A stretch of DNA of 25,640 bases, taken from positions 1-25,640 of IMG/VR virus record IMGVR_UViG_3300008267_000328. The stretch is one strand, 5' to 3'. The DNA comes from a virus. Of the stretch, positions 14,240-22,660 are shown one piece after another; position 1 is the first letter of the stretch; each line of letters starts with the position of its first letter. The position numbers and the translations under genes were made by a program. Under the pieces are notes generated by a model, which saw only the letters and a program-made list of their open reading frames with translations, was not told the DNA's origin and searched no databases.

Positions 14240-15541
14240 ATGGTTATGGATACTATTCAGCAGTTACAGGATTTTACAGCTCAGTCTGTATTCCTATATC
14301 CTATTGTGGAGGATAGTAGATTACACAACCACTTCAATAAGATTATTGGTTTTGTATTGATCGATACAGAGACTCGCAACACTATAACAATCAGCAACGG
14401 ACATCCGGAAGGCATCTACAATTCTAACGACCTATCCTTTCTAAAAGATCGTAAAGTATATTGCTACAATTGTATGAGCATGAGATATGCAGGTTATGAT
14501 GTATCTCAGTTTATAGATTGTAACATGCAGTATTATTTATATACCAACCAACCATACACACCCGATACACCAACTATCATAAACCATTACAATAGGCAAT
14601 ACCAAAACTTCTACAAGGTCAACAGTCTAGTACCTCTATACAAGCATGAGGAGATTGCATTATCGATCTTTGAAGATAGTTGGGTGAAGATTACTCAACC
14701 TGGTTTAAGCTTCTATCAAAATGAATTAGCTGAGGCCTTCTATCGTATAGAAAGCAATGGTATCAATGTCAATCGTGATAAGTTTGTAGAACGGTTTGGA
14801 CAAACACTGAGTCTGAATAAGGAGTATTGTTACACTCAGTACAACTTCTACACAACAACGGGAAGACCTAGTAATCGCTTTGGTGGAATCAACTTTGCAG
14901 CATTGAATAAAGAAGATGAGACGAGAGCAGTATTTCAAACGAGATATGATCCAGGTACACTAGTAGAGATTGACTTCAACTCTTATCACCCAAGATTGAT
15001 TGCTCAGATTATTGGTTATGACTTTGGTAGCGATAATGTGTATGAACACTTAGCGTGCCACTATCATAACACAGATAATCCAACTCAGGAACAGATTGAA
15101 GAAGCTAAGGAAGGAACCTTCAGACAATTGTATGGCGGTATCCAACAACAATACCTACACATTCCATTCTTCAGTAAGACAAACGACATGGCAAAGTATC
15201 TGTGGAGTAAGGCTGAAGAGGATGGCTATATCGAAAGTCCAATATCAGGTAGAAGACTAATACTAAGCAATTATCAGGACATAACCTTATATACATTATT
15301 CAACTACTTTGTGCAGATGTATGAGACTGAGACAAACGTACTCATCTTAAATAAGATACATAAGCTATTGGAGAATAGTAGGGTAAAGCCAGTACTATAC
15401 ACATACGATAGTATTCTATTCGATACACCAGCAGATCAGATTCCGTGGTTGTTGGAGGAAGTTATCCCTCAAGCAATTGATCTCGAGAAGTTCCCAATCA
15501 AGATAAAGCACGGTACTACTTACAAAAACCTTAGCGTTTAA
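14240..15541 (+). CDS. Compact divergent family A DNA polymerase
   Basis: Predicted replicative polymerase of 433 residues, under half of E. coli Pol I. The polymerase motifs are in the C-terminal 230 residues in the correct order: TTGRPSNRFGG...NFAALNK (about 206-224), motif A EIDFNSYHPRLIA with D245, motif B K290xxxF294xxxYG (298-299), and motif C VLYTYDSILFD with D390. The two metal-binding Asp are kept, but the steric-gate Glu of motif A is His250 and the HDE of motif C is YDS. The N-terminal 200 residues are Tyr/Asn-rich. They contain one DTET at 42-45 that could be remnant Exo I, without convincing Exo II/III, so proofreading may be absent or supplied by another gene. Start at 14240 or the in-frame ATG at 14246. 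Neighbouring ssDNA-binding, recombinase, exonuclease and helicase genes support the call. Confidence 0.82.
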   Translation: MVMDTIQQLQDFTAQSVFLYPIVEDSRLHNHFNKIIGFVLIDTETRNTITISNGHPEGIYNSNDLSFLKDRKVYCYNCMSMRYAGYDVSQFIDCNMQYYLYTNQPYTPDTPTIINHYNRQYQNFYKVNSLVPLYKHEEIALSIFEDSWVKITQPGLSFYQNELAEAFYRIESNGINVNRDKFVERFGQTLSLNKEYCYTQYNFYTTTGRPSNRFGGINFAALNKEDETRAVFQTRYDPGTLVEIDFNSYHPRLIAQIIGYDFGSDNVYEHLACHYHNTDNPTQEQIEEAKEGTFRQLYGGIQQQYLHIPFFSKTNDMAKYLWSKAEEDGYIESPISGRRLILSNYQDITLYTLFNYFVQMYETETNVLILNKIHKLLENSRVKPVLYTYDSILFDTPADQIPWLLEEVIPQAIDLEKFPIKIKHGTTYKNLSV

Positions 15542-15575: not shown

Positions 15576-15818
15576 ATGGCAAAAGGACAGTTGGATGTAT
15601 TAGAAAGCTTGATCCGCAAGGAGCTTGAAGCATACCTACGTGAGAATAAAATCAAGTTCAAAAGATTGAATGAACTTGAGTCAACTACTAATGCTGCGGA
15701 TGATCAAAAGGTAGCAGCGTTAAAACAAAAGAAAGCGGACCTAGATAAAAAAGCTGCACAAAATGATGCTGAGATTGCAAAACTCAAACAGCAGATTGAC
15801 GCGATAGAGAAGAAGTAA
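15576..15818 (+). CDS. Small coiled-coil protein, function unknown
   Basis: Eighty residues, highly charged. The N-terminus KGQLDVLESLIRKELEAYLR is amphipathic helix; after a short linker, residues about 42-80 form a regular Lys/Ala/Leu heptad repeat (AALKQKKADLDKK...), predicted coiled coil. It sits between the polymerase and another unknown gene, with its own late-type motif, so it is more likely a virion or assembly component than a replication factor. No family recognised. Confidence 0.72.
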   Translation: MAKGQLDVLESLIRKELEAYLRENKIKFKRLNELESTTNAADDQKVAALKQKKADLDKKAAQNDAEIAKLKQQIDAIEKK

Positions 15819-15821
15819 CAA

Positions 15822-16202
15822 ATGAGACCACAATTATTGTGCACATTCACGTACGTAGACAAACTTACTGTTAGTATTGGTCAGATATACAAAGCGTATA
15901 ACGCTGACGATGTTTCTAACATGAAGGTGTATTCCTATGTCCAGGTACCTAACAACGTGATTTGTGTATACAACGTATCAACTAGCGAAAGAAGATTGAA
16001 AGATACGATATCGATAAACAGAAAGAAAGATACAAATACCTTTTATAGCATTAATGCACTTAACAGCTTAATTAGAGTTCTAAATAACGGCGTACTAGAT
16101 AAGTCGTTTGCGATCGAATGGCCAAACTATAGGGACACACTCCTTTTAGCTGATGGCGAGTTCAACTGCAAAATGATTCAAATAAAAGAGCTAGCAGTAT
16201 AA
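15822..16202 (+). CDS. Conserved phage protein of unknown function (RKKDTNTFYSINALN)
   Basis: A 126-residue alpha/beta protein, begun 3 nt after the preceding stop and so co-transcribed with it. The most distinctive part is INRKKDTNTFYSINALNSLI (about residues 66-85), which I believe belongs to a small protein kept among T4-like phages of this kind; it is followed by DKSFAIEWPNYRDTLLL. The ordering near the gp32-like gene hints at replication or late-gene control, comparable in position to small T4 regulators, but it does not resemble RegA or any T4 clamp-loader protein that I can recognise. Function left open. Confidence 0.68.
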   Translation: MRPQLLCTFTYVDKLTVSIGQIYKAYNADDVSNMKVYSYVQVPNNVICVYNVSTSERRLKDTISINRKKDTNTFYSINALNSLIRVLNNGVLDKSFAIEWPNYRDTLLLADGEFNCKMIQIKELAV

Positions 16203-16361: not shown

Positions 16362-17141
16362 ATGGCGATCAATCTAGACGCAATCAAAGCAAAGCTACAA
16401 GCTATGCAACAAGCCAGCACTGGCGGGGGTGGAAACAAAGCAAACGAGTTTCTTTGGAAACCACCAGTAGGAAAATCCCAAGTACGTATCGTACCCTACG
16501 CACACGACAAAAACAATCCTTTTATTGAAATGTACTTCCACTATGAGATTGGGAAGCGCACAATGGTATCACCGGTTTCTTATGGCCGACCTGATCCTAT
16601 TGTTGAGTTTGCTGAGAAGTTGAAGAAGTCTGGAGATAAAGACGATTGGAAGTTGGGAAAAAAGATCGAACCTAAATTCCGAGTGTATGTACCAGTTATT
16701 GTACGTGGTGCAGAACATGAAGGTGTTAAGTTCTGGTCATTCGGTAAGCAAATCTACACAGAGTTGTTATCTGTAATTGCTGACCCAGATTATGGTGATA
16801 TCACAGACTTAATGAATGGTCGTGACTTGACTGTAGAGCACGTTGCTGCAGAGAAAGAGGGAGCCTTCCCATCATTCACAGTACGTGTGAAACCAAACAC
16901 AACTCCAGCAACAACTGACAAAGAAGTTGCAGAGATGATTGTAAACAACCAAAAGAACATCACAGAGTTGTTTACAGAATTGAGCTACGAAGAAATGACT
17001 GAGGCTTTGCAGAAGTGGTTAGACCCTTCAAGTGAAACAGCTGCAGATGGTACTAAGCCAGCTGCTGCAATCACTGGAGCAACTACTGCTACTAAAGCAG
17101 ACGACATCACTTCAGCATTTGACTCACTATTTAATACCTAA
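16362..17141 (+). CDS. 32: Single-stranded DNA-binding protein (T4 gp32-like)
   Basis: A 259-residue replication and recombination SSB (T4 gp32: 301). Diagnostic sequence: EFLWKPPVGKSQVRIVPYAH, FIEMYFHYEIGKRTMVSPVS, DDWKLGKKIEPKFRVYVPVI and GVKFWSFGKQIYTELLSVIA with DPDYGDITD, all of the gp32 OB-fold core. The C-terminus is Ala/Thr-rich linker followed by an acidic-hydrophobic tip (DDITSAFDSLFNT), the tail that recruits polymerase, recombinase and helicase loader in T4. There is no cysteine at all, so the His/Cys zinc site of T4 gp32 is absent. Tandem promoters upstream and position at the head of a gp32-uvsX-exonuclease-helicase run suggest strong early or middle expression. An out-of-frame ATG at 16357 stops quickly and is not used. 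Confidence 0.94.
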   Translation: MAINLDAIKAKLQAMQQASTGGGGNKANEFLWKPPVGKSQVRIVPYAHDKNNPFIEMYFHYEIGKRTMVSPVSYGRPDPIVEFAEKLKKSGDKDDWKLGKKIEPKFRVYVPVIVRGAEHEGVKFWSFGKQIYTELLSVIADPDYGDITDLMNGRDLTVEHVAAEKEGAFPSFTVRVKPNTTPATTDKEVAEMIVNNQKNITELFTELSYEEMTEALQKWLDPSSETAADGTKPAAAITGATTATKADDITSAFDSLFNT

Positions 17142-17146
17142 AACTT

Positions 17147-18295
17147 ATGGCAAAGCAGACTAATAAGACACCCGATGAAATTTCGGGAAGGGACGAACTA
17201 GCTTCCTTACTAGCGGATAGCTTAAACAAAAAGTTCAAAGACTTTAAGGCTGCGCATTTCCTAAGTGGTGAGGAAGAAACTCCAACAGATTTAACAGAGT
17301 GGGTCGGTACCGGCTCCTCTCTGTTAGACCTGGCAATCTCAAACAGACCTGATGGTGGATTTCCAGTAGGTCGTATTGTTGAACTTCAGGGTATGGAAGC
17401 TTCAGGAAAGAGTTTGATTGTAGCTCATACACTAGCGAATACGCAGAAGAAAGGTGGACTTGCGGTTTATATTGATACTGAAAATGCATTAAGTGAAGAG
17501 TTCTTACGTGCAGTAGGTGTAGATGTTGCTAACATGCTATATGTACCGCTTGAGACAATTGAAGATGCGTTTGAAGCAATCGAGAATATTATCGAGACAG
17601 TTCGCAAAAGTTCAAAAGACAGACTAGTAACAATTGCATTGGATTCTGTATCAGCAGCTACTACAAAAGTAGAACAAGATGCTGACTATGAAAAAGATGG
17701 TTGGGCTACTACAAAAGCTATCTTGATGTCAAAAGCAATGCGTAAGATTACAAACATTATCGCAAAGCAGAGAGTACTATTATTATGTACATCTCAGTTG
17801 CGTGAGAAGATGGGAGTAATGTTTGGAGACAAGTACACTACATCAGGTGGTAAGGCTTTAGGTTTCCATGCAAGCTGTCGCATTCGATTGAAGGGAGTTG
17901 GTAAACTGAAAAGTGGATCTGGAAAGACTGAACAAATCATTGGAGTACAGACAGAAGCTCAGGTTATCAAGAACCGTATGGGACCTCCATTTAAGAAAGC
18001 TACATTTGACATCTACTTCAATTCTGGTATTGATGATTACAATAGCTGGTTATCTTTGATGAAAGATTATGGAGCACTAAAACAAGCAGGTGCTTACTAT
18101 ACTCTAGTCAATGAGGAGACTGGTGAAGAGATCAAGTTCATGTCCAAAGATTGGAGAGGAATGTTAGAAAAAGATGAAAATCTAAAACAATATTGTTACA
18201 ATAAAATCTGCAATATCTTCGTTATGAAGTATCGTGATCAAGATCACATCAATCCAGACGAGATATCAGTAGATGATGAAGAGCTAACTGACTAA
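17147..18295 (+). CDS. uvsX: UvsX/RecA-type recombinase
   Basis: Strand-exchange ATPase, 382 residues, acting with gp32 in recombination-dependent replication and repair. Walker A is GMEASGKS (82-89, K88); YIDTENAL (108-115) holds the probable catalytic Glu112; Walker B strand VTIALDS (D166). CTSQLREKMGVMFGDKY (214-230) and TTSGGKALGF correspond to the DNA-binding L2 region and the adjacent motif of RecA. These are closer to bacterial RecA (NQIRMKIGVMFG, TTTGGNAL) than I would expect for T4 UvsX. It starts 5 nt after gp32 and overlaps the next start by 1 nt, so it is co-transcribed with both. The C-terminus is acidic (SVDDEELTD), as in RecA and UvsX. Confidence 0.95.
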   Translation: MAKQTNKTPDEISGRDELASLLADSLNKKFKDFKAAHFLSGEEETPTDLTEWVGTGSSLLDLAISNRPDGGFPVGRIVELQGMEASGKSLIVAHTLANTQKKGGLAVYIDTENALSEEFLRAVGVDVANMLYVPLETIEDAFEAIENIIETVRKSSKDRLVTIALDSVSAATTKVEQDADYEKDGWATTKAILMSKAMRKITNIIAKQRVLLLCTSQLREKMGVMFGDKYTTSGGKALGFHASCRIRLKGVGKLKSGSGKTEQIIGVQTEAQVIKNRMGPPFKKATFDIYFNSGIDDYNSWLSLMKDYGALKQAGAYYTLVNEETGEEIKFMSKDWRGMLEKDENLKQYCYNKICNIFVMKYRDQDHINPDEISVDDEELTD

Positions 18296-19338
18296 TGATA
18301 AATAAGTACCAAGCATTAATAAACGAGCTCAAGTTACGACAGAATGAAAGTGAGGCCGTTCACAAAAACTCAAGAGTGTTGATTGTTGACGGCCTCAACA
18401 CTTTCATACGAGCTTATGCCGCAAGTCCGGTTACAAATACTAACGGTGAGCATGTAGGAGGAATCTCAGGATTTCTACTCAGTGTAGGTCATGCTATCAA
18501 AGCTATCAATCCAACTCGGTTGGTGATAGTGTTTGATGGAAAGGATGGCTCTGCACGTAGGAGGTCTATGTATCCTGACTACAAAGGAAACCGTAAAGTC
18601 AAGATTCGATTGAATCGATCAGAGACAGTCGATAAAGAAGATAACCAACTGCAGCAGTTAATGCGATTGACAGAGTACTTGGATATCATGCCAGTTAACA
18701 CTATCGTTATTGATCGAGCTGAAGCTGATGACGTCATTGCGTATCTTTCTAATGACTACCTAGCAAATAAAGATTCTCAGGTATTCATTATGTCATCGGA
18801 TAAAGATTTTATGCAGTTAGTAGATAGCCGTGTACATATCTGGAGTCCAACAAAGAAGCAAATGTATTACGTAGATGACGTTGTTGAGCAGTATGGAATC
18901 ATTCCTCAGAACTTTGCTTTGTATAGAGCGTTGACTGGAGATGATAGTGATAACATTCCTGGAGTAAATGGAGTTGGTACAAAGACGTTACTAGACAAGT
19001 TTCCTAAAATAGCAACAGACGTAATGACTGTGGATGACTTTATCGAATACACAAAAGAGCTTCAAGCACAAAGCAAAGCTAAGATATACGATAAAGTACT
19101 TCAAGCAGAAGCTGACCTGAGATTGTACTTTGAGATTGTACAGCTTGGAGTTAGCAACATCAACACGAGCAGTAAGATGAAGATCATGGATATGATGGAG
19201 CAGCCTACCGATAAGTTGGCTAAGATCAAATTCCACCAGATGCTTATGCTCGATGGTATGACTAATGCGATAAAGAACGTCGAATTATGGCTACGAGAAA
19301 CTACTACGAAACTTGATCAATATTGTTTGCAAGATTAG
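18295..19338 (+). CDS. 5'-3' exonuclease / flap endonuclease (T4 RNase H-like)
   Basis: Metal-dependent PIN-like nuclease of 347 residues that would remove RNA primers and 5' flaps. Catalytic acidic residues are in the expected blocks: VLIVDGLNTFIRAY (D32), VIVFDGKDGSARRRSMYPDY (D81), DRAEADDVIAYL (E143, D145, D146), MSSDKDF (D169, D171) and GDDSDNIPGVNGVGTKT (D216, D217, D219), the last merging into the helix-3-turn-helix DNA-binding motif. T4 RNase H is 305 residues. The family A polymerase in this window has no 5' nuclease domain, so this separate enzyme supplies the activity. Its ATG overlaps the stop of uvsX, suggesting coupling, and the helicase follows 23 nt later. Confidence 0.92.
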   Translation: MINKYQALINELKLRQNESEAVHKNSRVLIVDGLNTFIRAYAASPVTNTNGEHVGGISGFLLSVGHAIKAINPTRLVIVFDGKDGSARRRSMYPDYKGNRKVKIRLNRSETVDKEDNQLQQLMRLTEYLDIMPVNTIVIDRAEADDVIAYLSNDYLANKDSQVFIMSSDKDFMQLVDSRVHIWSPTKKQMYYVDDVVEQYGIIPQNFALYRALTGDDSDNIPGVNGVGTKTLLDKFPKIATDVMTVDDFIEYTKELQAQSKAKIYDKVLQAEADLRLYFEIVQLGVSNINTSSKMKIMDMMEQPTDKLAKIKFHQMLMLDGMTNAIKNVELWLRETTTKLDQYCLQD

Positions 19339-19361: not shown

Positions 19362-20729
19362 ATGCAAGTAGAAGATACATTACAGTTTTATGGATCAGCG
19401 TTTCAAAACAAAGTCCTATCCATATTAATCAAAGACAGAACTTTCCTACAGCAGGTTCATGATATTATCGATCCTCGATTCTTTTCATCCGAATCTGCTC
19501 AATGGCTTGCGAAGACTACCTTAGAATATTTTAACACATACAAGTCCCCACCTACTTTAGAGGTGTTGAAGGTGGAGTTGGATAAGGTCGATATTGACTT
19601 ATTGAAAACAACCGTTGTAGAGAATATCCGAGAGGTTTTGAAATTCGCAGATGCAGAAGATAGTGAGTATATTAAAGACAAGACTCTAGACTTCTGTAAG
19701 AATCAAAAACTAAAAGCAGCTATCTTGAAGTCTGTTGAACTTCTCAAGTCAGGGAAGTACGATGAGATCAAAAGTGGTATTGATGAGGCAATGAAGGCAG
19801 GTGCTGATAAGAATATCGGTCACGATTACATTGATGACATTGCTTTACGTTTTGTTGAGAATAAACGAAACACCATTGAGACACCGTGGGATGTAGTTAA
19901 TGAAATTATGGATGGTGGATTGGGTACTGGTGAGATGGGAGTATTTGTAGCTCCGGCTGGTATTGGTAAGTCGATGGCATTAGTGAACATTGCTGCTTAT
20001 GCAGCTAAGAAAGGACTGAATGTTATTTACTACACGCTAGAGCTTTCGGAGACTTATGTAGGAGCTCGCTTTGACTCTCACTACTCAGGTATTCCTTCTC
20101 AAGACTTAAAGTATCATCAGGAAGAGGTTATTGAAGCTATCAAGGGAGTTAAGGGTAAGTTAGTTGTAAAGTATTACCCAACTAAGACTGCATCAGTTAA
20201 TACAATATCAGCACATCTAGATAAGTGCATCATGCAGGGTATTAAACCAGATGTTGTTCTTGTCGACTACGCTGACTTGTTGAGAGATACTGGTGTGAAG
20301 GGGTCGGTACGAAATGACATCATGCTAGGAAACATTTACGAAGAGTTGCGTGGATTAGCTGGAACATATCAAGTACCTTTGTATACAGCATCGCAAGCAA
20401 ATCGATCAGCTCTTGAAGAGGATGTTATTGAAGCAGATAAGATTGCTGAGTCGTATGCTAAGGTGATGGTTGCTGACTTTGTAGTATCACTATCTCGTAA
20501 GACAGCTGATAAGATTAGTGGTACTGGTAGATGGCACGTTATCAAGAATCGATTCGGACCAGATGGATTGACCTTCCCGAGTAAGATGAATATGGCTACA
20601 GCTAAGATTGACATCTATGCAGAAAACACAGTAATGGGTAAAGAAGCTAAGCAATTAATGCAGAATGAAGATGAGGTAGTAAGAAAAGCCTTGGCCAATA
20701 AATTTTCTGAATTAAACACGTTAATTTGA
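19362..20729 (+). CDS. dnaB: DnaB-type replicative helicase (T4 gp41-like)
   Basis: Hexameric 5'-3' replicative helicase, 455 residues (T4 gp41: 475). N-terminal DnaB-like helical domain (FYGSAFQNKVLSILIKDRTF, DPRFFSS); RecA-fold ATPase with Walker A VAPAGIGKS (K203), LELSE (E227), Walker B DVVLVDYADLL (D302), and YTASQANRSAL (about 341-351), the typical DnaB motif H4 region. ENKRNTIETPWDVVNEIMDG matches the linker before the ATPase. Last gene of the gp32-uvsX-nuclease-helicase series; no primase is seen in the window. A weak AAGG precedes the ATG by about 10 nt, one of few such cases here. Confidence 0.94.
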   Translation: MQVEDTLQFYGSAFQNKVLSILIKDRTFLQQVHDIIDPRFFSSESAQWLAKTTLEYFNTYKSPPTLEVLKVELDKVDIDLLKTTVVENIREVLKFADAEDSEYIKDKTLDFCKNQKLKAAILKSVELLKSGKYDEIKSGIDEAMKAGADKNIGHDYIDDIALRFVENKRNTIETPWDVVNEIMDGGLGTGEMGVFVAPAGIGKSMALVNIAAYAAKKGLNVIYYTLELSETYVGARFDSHYSGIPSQDLKYHQEEVIEAIKGVKGKLVVKYYPTKTASVNTISAHLDKCIMQGIKPDVVLVDYADLLRDTGVKGSVRNDIMLGNIYEELRGLAGTYQVPLYTASQANRSALEEDVIEADKIAESYAKVMVADFVVSLSRKTADKISGTGRWHVIKNRFGPDGLTFPSKMNMATAKIDIYAENTVMGKEAKQLMQNEDEVVRKALANKFSELNTLI

Positions 20730-20800: not shown

Positions 20801-22660
20801 ATGATGACATTATCTAACGAGATCCTTAGTGAGATCACGGTTTTTATGAAATATGCCAAGTATATTCCTGAGCTACAACGAAGAGAGACATGGGAAGAGT
20901 TGGTAACACGCAACAAGAACATGCACCTTAAAAAATATCCTAACCTAACGGAAGAGATAGAAGAAGTTTACAAGATGGTGTATGCTAAGAAGATTTTGCC
21001 ATCAATGAGGTCTATGCAGTTTGCAGGAAAGCCAATTGAGATTTCTCCTAACAGAGTTTACAATTGTGCTTACTTACCAATCGATGACTATCGTGCATTT
21101 GGTGAAGCAATGTTCCTATTGCTTGGAGGAACAGGTGTTGGGTACTCAGTACAAAAACATCACGTAGAAGCTCTACCGGAGATTCGCAAACCAAGCGTTA
21201 AACGTACAAAGCGATTCTTGATTGCTGACTCTATCGAAGGATGGGCAGATGCAGTTAAGGCTCTTATCAAAAGTTACTTTCACGGAACATCTCGTATGGA
21301 GTTTGACTTTTCAGACATCCGTCCAAAAGGTGCTCGTCTAGTTACATCAGGTGGTAAAGCTCCAGGCGCACAACCACTGAAAGAGTGTCTTGTGAAAGTT
21401 CAAGGTATTTTAGATGCAAAAGAAAATGGAGACAAATTATCACCAATTGAAGTACATGACATCGTATGTCATATTGCGGATGCAGTCCTTGCCGGAGGTA
21501 TTCGTAGAGCAGCTCTTATTAGCTTGTTTAGTGCTGACGACGATGAAATGATCGCTTGCAAATCAGGTAACTGGTGGGAAACCAATCCACAACGTGGACG
21601 TGCAAACAACTCAGCTGTATTGATGAGACACAAACTTACCAAAGAGTTCTTTATGGATATCTGGAAGCGTGTTGAGTTATCAGGAGCAGGAGAGCCAGGT
21701 ATCTATTTGACTAACGACAAAGACTGGGGAACTAACCCTTGCTGTGAGATTGCACTACGTCCATTCCAATTCTGTAACTTGTGTGAGGTAAACGTATCGG
21801 ATATCGAATCACAAGAAGACTTGAATGCTCGTGTGAAAGCAGCGTCATTTATTGGAACACTGCAAGCAGGCTACACAAACTTCCACTACCTACGTGACGT
21901 ATGGAGACGTACAACTGAGAAGGATGCATTGATCGGAGTGTCTATGACTGGTATCGGATCTGGTACAGTATTAGGATACAACATGAAAGAAGCAGCTAAA
22001 GTTGTTAAGGAAGAAAACATTCGTGTAGCAGAGTTGATCGGTATCAATAAGTCAGCTCGTACAACAACCGTTAAGCCAGCTGGTACTACATCACTGACAT
22101 TAGGAACAAGCTCAGGTATTCACGCATGGCATAATGACTTCTACATCCGTCGTATTCGCGTAGGAAAGAATGAAGCAATTTATAGCTACCTTGCAATCAA
22201 TCACCCAGAGTTAGTTGAAGATGAGTACTTCCGTCCACATGACACAGCAGTAATCTCTATTCCACAAAAAGCACCAGAAGGAGCGATCCTAAGAACAGAA
22301 TCACCTTTCCAATTGCTAGAGCGTATTAAGAAAGTACACTTGGAGTGGGTTAAACCAGGACATCGTTCAGGAAACAACACACATAACGTATCTGCTACAG
22401 TATCATTGAGAGATGAAGAGTGGGATATGGCTGGTGAGTGGATGTGGGAGAACCGCGATCACTACAACGGTCTATCAGTACTACCTTTCAATGGTGGTAC
22501 ATACACTCAAGCTCCTTTCGAAGATTGTACGGAGGAAGTTTACGAAGAGATGATGAAATCATTGCACAGCATCGACTTATCCAAAGTGATTGAGTTAGAT
22601 GACACAACAGACCTCAAAGGTGAGGCAGCTTGTGCAGGTGGTGCATGCGAAATCGTGTAA
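20801..22660 (+). CDS. nrdJ: Class II (adenosylcobalamin-dependent) ribonucleotide reductase
   Basis: Reduces ribonucleotides to deoxyribonucleotides for phage DNA synthesis. 619 residues; the sequence follows the monomeric Lactobacillus leichmannii triphosphate reductase type (739 residues). Seen: VYNCAYLP with C89 (equivalent to C119), MFLLLGGTGVGYSVQ, TNPCCEIALRPFQFCNLCEV with thiyl-radical Cys C314, E316 and C325 (C408/E410/C419), TTTVKPAGTTSLTLGTSSGI, and the redox shuttle Cys pair C611 and C616 in ACAGGACEIV at the end. No separate small subunit is present, consistent with class II, so the enzyme depends on host-derived B12. The codon after the motif Cys is a second Cys, where Gly is usual. 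It leads an overlapping group that ends with dUTPase. Confidence 0.93.
   Translation: MMTLSNEILSEITVFMKYAKYIPELQRRETWEELVTRNKNMHLKKYPNLTEEIEEVYKMVYAKKILPSMRSMQFAGKPIEISPNRVYNCAYLPIDDYRAFGEAMFLLLGGTGVGYSVQKHHVEALPEIRKPSVKRTKRFLIADSIEGWADAVKALIKSYFHGTSRMEFDFSDIRPKGARLVTSGGKAPGAQPLKECLVKVQGILDAKENGDKLSPIEVHDIVCHIADAVLAGGIRRAALISLFSADDDEMIACKSGNWWETNPQRGRANNSAVLMRHKLTKEFFMDIWKRVELSGAGEPGIYLTNDKDWGTNPCCEIALRPFQFCNLCEVNVSDIESQEDLNARVKAASFIGTLQAGYTNFHYLRDVWRRTTEKDALIGVSMTGIGSGTVLGYNMKEAAKVVKEENIRVAELIGINKSARTTTVKPAGTTSLTLGTSSGIHAWHNDFYIRRIRVGKNEAIYSYLAINHPELVEDEYFRPHDTAVISIPQKAPEGAILRTESPFQLLERIKKVHLEWVKPGHRSGNNTHNVSATVSLRDEEWDMAGEWMWENRDHYNGLSVLPFNGGTYTQAPFEDCTEEVYEEMMKSLHSIDLSKVIELDDTTDLKGEAACAGGACEIV

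What the first reader, a model, noticed from the sequence alone, without database searches (positions are those of the whole stretch)
14240..15541. Minimal polymerase with altered catalytic signatures
Only 433 residues, with family A order of motifs but His250 at the steric-gate position of motif A (DFNSYHPR instead of DYSQIELR), YDS instead of HDE in motif C, and Ile where motif B usually has Arg. The gate residue controls discrimination against ribonucleotides, and the missing Glu in motif C should change metal or primer handling. N-terminus lacks a clear exonuclease set. It may represent a little-studied phage polymerase lineage.
Basis: partly seen in the sequence, partly recalled or inferred. 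Interest (0 to 1): 0.62.

Follow-up and report, generated by a model that had tools for sequence, protein, structure and literature searches.

The report
Thumbless accessory phage DNA polymerase
Many aquatic T4-like viruses of bacteria carry, besides a normal DNA-copying enzyme, a second shrunken one that has lost its DNA-gripping "thumb" and its proofreading site but keeps its catalytic core, always beside the same small partner gene, so it is probably a helper polymerase rather than the genome copier.

Summary
Sequence profile, AlphaFold (pLDDT 94.7) and Foldseek (Klenow, E 2.6e-19) place it in polymerase family A. The larger anomaly was missed: the thumb subdomain is gone. In 200 distinct relatives 23-43 residues replace 125-217 in canonical enzymes, yet both catalytic Asp, the gate His, Arg668, Phe762, Gln849 and Tyr389 equivalents are kept in 200/200, and dN/dS is 0.02-0.03. 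It is not the phage's replicase: a 127-kb contig of the same phage (96.7% identity over 22.4 kb) encodes a full family A polymerase with proofreading and HDE motifs. Of 13 relatives' records of at least 100 kb, 12 carry a separate replicase, family A (5) or family B (7), never both. The minimal gene forms one clade (100/100) and always sits before an undescribed 126-aa partner, then gp32-SSB, RecA/UvsX, 5'-3' exonuclease and DnaB (partner 83/83; order 51/51). Best reading: an accessory, probably gap-filling or recombination-coupled polymerase. Its biochemistry is untested. New variant of a known kind.

The parts
14240..15541 (+). minimal, thumbless family A polymerase gene (433 aa)
14240..14695 (+). 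vestigial 3'-5' exonuclease-like domain, about residues 1-150; catalytic acidic residues absent (P21, V23 at D355/E357), H55 and D93 (near-)invariant, H29 in 189/200
14741..14863 (+). junction where the thumb is missing: about residues 168-208, 38 residues from E171 to R209 against 127 in E. coli Pol I
14852..14875 (+). TTTGRPSN motif, residues 205-212 (R209 = Arg668 of Pol I)
14972..14995 (+). motif A DFNSYHPR, residues 245-252 (D245 = D705, H250 = E710 steric gate)
15095..15136 (+). motif B / O-helix, residues 286-299 (I286 = R754, K290 = K758, F294 = F762, Y298 = Y766)
15299..15331 (+). FNYFVQMYETE, residues 354-364 (N355 = N845, Q359 = Q849; E362 invariant)
15404..15412 (+). motif C YDS, residues 389-391 (H881-D882-E883 of Pol I)
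15822..16202 (+). co-conserved partner protein (126 aa), no Pfam, PHROG or PDB relative; small alpha/beta fold predicted (pLDDT 93.1)
16362..17141 (+). gp32-like ssDNA-binding protein (PF08804, E 5e-14)
17147..18295 (+). RecA/UvsX-like recombinase (PF00154)
18295..19338 (+). 5'-3' exonuclease (FEN; PF02739, PF01367), the nuclease that Pol I carries in the same chain
19362..20729 (+). DnaB-like replicative helicase (PF03796)

Best explanation
The gene encodes an accessory family A DNA polymerase of a T4-like phage, distinct from the phage's replicase. SHOWN (computation): palm and fingers with the two catalytic aspartates and the dNTP- and primer-contact residues; an exonuclease-like N-domain without metal ligands; no thumb; one monophyletic lineage kept under strong purifying selection beside replicases of either family A or B; strict linkage to a 126-aa partner and to the SSB-RecA-FEN-DnaB block. 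INFERRED: it is catalytically active and of low processivity because it has no thumb to hold duplex; the partner and/or gp32 hold it on the primer-template; with the neighbouring 5'-3' exonuclease it does the Pol I type of job (filling gaps at Okazaki junctions or in recombination intermediates made by the RecA-like protein), so Pol I's functions are spread over separate genes. The conserved His at the steric-gate position suggests that sugar discrimination is altered rather than lost.
For: Family A fold and motifs: PHROG_17 DNA polymerase E 9e-10, PF00476 in 54/68 relatives, Klenow by profile E 1.6e-7, AF2 pLDDT 94.7 / pTM 0.91, Foldseek to Klenow E 2.6e-19 across the whole Klenow length. Catalytic residues fixed in 199-200 of 200; dN/dS 0.022 and 0.031. 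Thumb absent: 23-43 residues against 125-217. Separate replicase in the same phage and in 12 of 13 large records. One clade, 100/100. Synteny with SSB-RecA-FEN-DnaB 51/51, partner between polymerase and SSB 83/83, partner always with polymerase 37/37.
Against: No biochemistry. A polymerase without a thumb may not bind duplex productively. Motif A, B and C substitutions could cripple catalysis. Synteny shows association, not the step in which it acts.
Confidence: 0.6

Rival explanations
1. It is a polymerase for unusual synthesis: translesion, ribonucleotide-tolerant, or template- or primer-independent single-strand synthesis, as in the thumbless Abi reverse transcriptases.
For: His in place of the steric-gate Glu in 200/200, Ser/Ala in motif C, no proofreading, no thumb. 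In AbiA, AbiK and Abi-P2 loss of the thumb goes with single-stranded, untemplated DNA synthesis (PMC11077055).
Against: Phe762, Lys758, Tyr766, Arg668, Gln849 and Asn845 equivalents, which serve template-directed synthesis in Pol I, are kept. In the Abi enzymes a helical domain fills the thumb's place; none is seen in this chain. Reverse transcriptases are only an analogy.
Confidence: 0.22
2. It is a non-catalytic family A relative used as a structural or loading factor in the SSB-RecA-helicase block.
For: No thumb, dead exonuclease domain, altered motifs A, B and C; two invariant or near-invariant His in the N-domain hint at a non-polymerase function.
Against: Both catalytic Asp and the dNTP contacts are kept in 199-200 of 200 sequences over a clade down to about 26% identity; a pseudo-enzyme would normally lose them.
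Confidence: 0.15
3. It is the phage's replicative polymerase (the reading implied by the first reader).
For: It sits beside the replication and recombination genes.
Against: A full-length family A polymerase with exonuclease motifs (YDIETT, HNGSFD, YAAAD) and HDE is in the same phage's 127-kb contig; 12 of 13 large records have a separate replicase; no thumb and no proofreading.
Confidence: 0.03

Closest known systems
E. coli DNA polymerase I, Klenow fragment (family A, PF00476)
   Same: Order of exonuclease-like, palm and fingers domains; D705, D882, R668, K758, F762, Y766, N845 and Q849 equivalents; Foldseek E 2.6e-19
   Different: No thumb (38 against 127 residues), shortened fingers, no exonuclease ligands, E710 to His, H881-D-E883 to Y-D-S/A; 5'-3' exonuclease is a separate gene
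Flavobacterium phage immuto gp001 (YP_010114413), annotated 'DNA polymerase family A'
   Same: Same lineage, same gene order, same motif changes (YDA), thumbless, second full-length family A polymerase gp199 in the same genome
   Different: About 28-30% identical; not described functionally in any paper found
Microcystis phage Mel-JY01 WWT39333 ('hypothetical protein') and jumbo phage record LR756508
   Same: Same lineage, partner and synteny
   Different: Their separate replicase is family B; LR756508 also has a Pol III alpha-like match
Abi reverse transcriptases (AbiA, AbiK, Abi-P2)
   Same: Phage-related polymerases with palm and fingers but no thumb (PMC11077055)
   Different: Unrelated polymerase family (RT); a helical domain takes the thumb's place; defence function; works-like comparison only
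Rhodothermus phage RM378
   Same: T4-like phage with several separately encoded polymerase-related genes
   Different: No match to the minimal-polymerase profile in its genome

Membership tests
Family A DNA polymerase (PF00476) | significant profile or structure match to the palm-fingers core | tested here: met
   PF00476 in 54/68 relatives (best 5.5e-14; the window protein itself is below detection), Klenow E 1.6e-7 by profile, Foldseek E 2.6e-19
Family A DNA polymerase (PF00476) | two catalytic Asp in motifs A and C | tested here: met
   D245 and D390, 200/200
Family A DNA polymerase (PF00476) | O-helix Lys, Phe/Tyr762, Tyr766 and Arg754 | tested here: inconclusive
   Lys, Phe and Tyr kept in 199-200; Arg754 position is Y145, I28, R23
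Family A DNA polymerase (PF00476) | steric-gate Glu and HDE motif C | tested here: not met
   His 200/200 and YD(S/A) 200/200
Family A DNA polymerase (PF00476) | thumb subdomain | tested here: not met
   E171-R209 distance 23-43 residues against 125-217 in T7 gp5, Pol I, RedRock, G001 and immuto full-length. Filed as a lineage derived from family A, not as a typical member
Proofreading polymerase | DxE, motif II Asp, YxxxD exonuclease ligands | tested here: not met
   absent
Phage replicase | only or main DNA polymerase of the genome | tested here: not met
   separate family A or B replicase in 12 of 13 large records and in the same phage
DNA polymerase activity | template-directed dNTP incorporation | not testable with these tools
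   needs biochemistry
Abi-type thumbless RT | reverse transcriptase fold with helical domain in the thumb's place | tested here: not met
   the 50 best PDB matches are family A polymerases, none an RT; no such helical domain in the model

The most novel reading that the evidence does not exclude
A two-component enzyme of a kind not described: a family A polymerase core that gave up its thumb and works only with a dedicated 126-aa partner, possibly with relaxed sugar selection (gate His) or single-strand synthesis, used at recombination forks by many aquatic T4-like phages whatever replicase they carry.
Probability: 0.3. Interest if true: 0.82.

Novelty: new variant of a known kind. Interest (0 to 1): 0.62.

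Why it matters
The thumb is one of the three parts by which DNA polymerases are defined and the one that holds the product duplex. A widespread, strongly conserved family A lineage without it, kept while the replicase itself differs between families A and B, asks directly what the minimal polymerase unit is and what a phage needs a second polymerase for. It also warns surveys that use polA as a phage marker: in these phages a polA-like gene does not identify the replicase. The 126-aa partner is a ready target for pull-down and structure work.

Tried and rejected
Replicase hypothesis: rejected by the second, complete polymerase. RM378, recalled as a phage with a split family A polymerase: no match to the profile in its genome, lead dropped. 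RegA-like translation repressor as an identity for the partner: only a resemblance from memory; no Pfam, PHROG, PDB sequence or PDB fold match. ORF 15576-15818 (80 aa, coiled-coil-like) as a replacement thumb: dropped because it is found only in the window's near relatives. Host gene: rejected; in 84,980 bacterial and archaeal genomes only eight contigs (at most 43 kb, in metagenome bins) matched, mostly with the same phage gene order; none in plasmids. Promoter and terminator scan of the region gave no more than chance. BFVD search: the 50 best matches are all longer polymerases (517 aa or more) with target-normalised TM-score at most 0.52, so the lineage appears to be missing there. Literature search found no description of a thumbless family A polymerase, but only open-access papers are held.

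Full report
WHAT IS THERE. The ORF at 14240-15541 (+) is open, ATG-started and 433 aa long. The window is a 25,640-base IMG/VR virus fragment. Alone, the protein has no Pfam hit and a PHROG 'DNA polymerase' match at 9e-10 over residues 196-408. As a family it is clearly polymerase family A: 54 of 68 relatives hit PF00476, best 5.5e-14; a profile of 68 relatives hits the Klenow fragment at 1.6e-7; the AlphaFold model has pLDDT 94.7 and pTM 0.91, and its best PDB match is Klenow, E 2.6e-19, TM-score 0.70, with the alignment running over the whole length of Klenow.

MOTIFS. In the model D245 ends a strand, K290-Y298 lie in one helix and Y389-D390 sit in the turn of a hairpin, as expected for a family A palm and fingers. 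Over 200 distinct sequences D245, H250, R209, F294, Q359, Y389 and D390 are fixed, and K290, Y298 and N355 are kept in 199. dN/dS against two close relatives is 0.022 and 0.031, so the gene is under strong constraint.

THE MISSING THUMB. The profile-Klenow alignment comes in two parts: the 'IExNG' helix matches Klenow chain residues 199-230, and the TGR motif onwards matches from about 322. Between the conserved Glu of that helix and the TGR Arg there are 23-43 residues (median 38) in 200 relatives, against 127 in Pol I, 200 in T7, 125 in RedRock, and 196 and 217 in the full-length polymerases of these same phages. The thumb is therefore absent throughout the lineage. The fingers are also shortened after the O-helix. 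The N-terminal 150 residues keep an exonuclease-like fold, but D355 and E357 are replaced by P21 and V23 and the other ligands are gone; H55 is invariant, D93 kept in 197/200 and H29 in 189/200 for unknown reasons.

NOT THE REPLICASE. A 127,149-base contig carries the same phage: 96.7% identity over 22.4 kb of the window. It encodes a 747-aa family A polymerase with exonuclease motifs YDIETT, HNGSFD and YAAAD and motif C HDE, about 19 kb downstream of the minimal gene. Among 13 records of at least 100 kb that carry the minimal gene, five have a separate full-length family A polymerase (G001, G006, G015, G016, immuto) and seven a family B polymerase (G007, G008, G010, G019, G020, Mel-JY01, LR756508), never both; one 116-kb record, G009, shows neither, and its copy lies near a contig end. 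A tree of the core region joins all minimal polymerases in one clade at 100/100, apart from the replicases of the same phages. The minimal gene has therefore stayed while the replicase was exchanged at least once. The tree's inner order is only partly resolved and several branches are long.

NEIGHBOURHOOD. In all 51 loci long enough to show it, the order is minimal polymerase, gp32-like SSB, RecA-like, 5'-3' exonuclease, DnaB, usually preceded by tail and baseplate-region genes. In 83 of 83 loci a 126-aa-type protein (window 15822-16202) lies between polymerase and SSB. Searched independently, this partner has the minimal polymerase upstream in 37 of 37 loci with room to see it, and among 50,697 phage records it occurs in exactly the six that have the polymerase. 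It has no Pfam, PHROG or PDB relative and a confident small alpha/beta model.

MECHANISM. Shown: fold, residues, missing thumb, linkage, constraint, coexistence with a replicase. Inferred: that it polymerises, that the partner or SSB compensates for the thumb, and that it fills gaps together with the 5'-3' exonuclease, i.e. the Pol I functions spread over several genes. The chief rival is unusual synthesis; thumbless Abi reverse transcriptases make untemplated single-stranded DNA (PMC11077055). A scaffold role is less likely because the catalytic residues never vary.

NOVELTY. GenBank already calls the immuto copy 'DNA polymerase family A', and Mel-JY01's is 'hypothetical protein'. No paper in the open library held describes the lineage, its lack of a thumb, or its coexistence with a replicase. 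I rate it a new variant of a known kind.

Noticed in passing
80-1354 and 1358-1966: A collagen-like GPT-repeat protein (PF01391, E 4e-25) is followed directly by a 2OG-Fe(II) oxygenase (PF13640, E 1e-13): possibly a phage enzyme that hydroxylates its own collagen-like fibre.
   Followed up: partly
15822-16202: Undescribed 126-aa protein strictly tied to the minimal polymerase, with no relative in Pfam, PHROGs or PDB.
   Followed up: yes
20801-22660: 619-aa ribonucleotide reductase with a B12-dependent (class II) insertion-domain match, where immuto has separate NrdA and NrdB genes at the same place.
   Followed up: no
L008:566-1896: One relative's minimal polymerase is split by a frameshift into two overlapping ORFs; a sequencing error or a decaying copy.
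   Followed up: no
LR756508.1 47415-48068 and 260623-266900: The 484-kb jumbo phage record seems to carry a Pol III alpha-like ORF, an interrupted family B polymerase and the minimal family A polymerase together.
   Followed up: no
residues H29, H55 and D93 of 14240-15541: Invariant or nearly invariant residues in the otherwise degenerate exonuclease-like domain (H55 200/200, D93 197/200, H29 189/200); role unknown.
   Followed up: no
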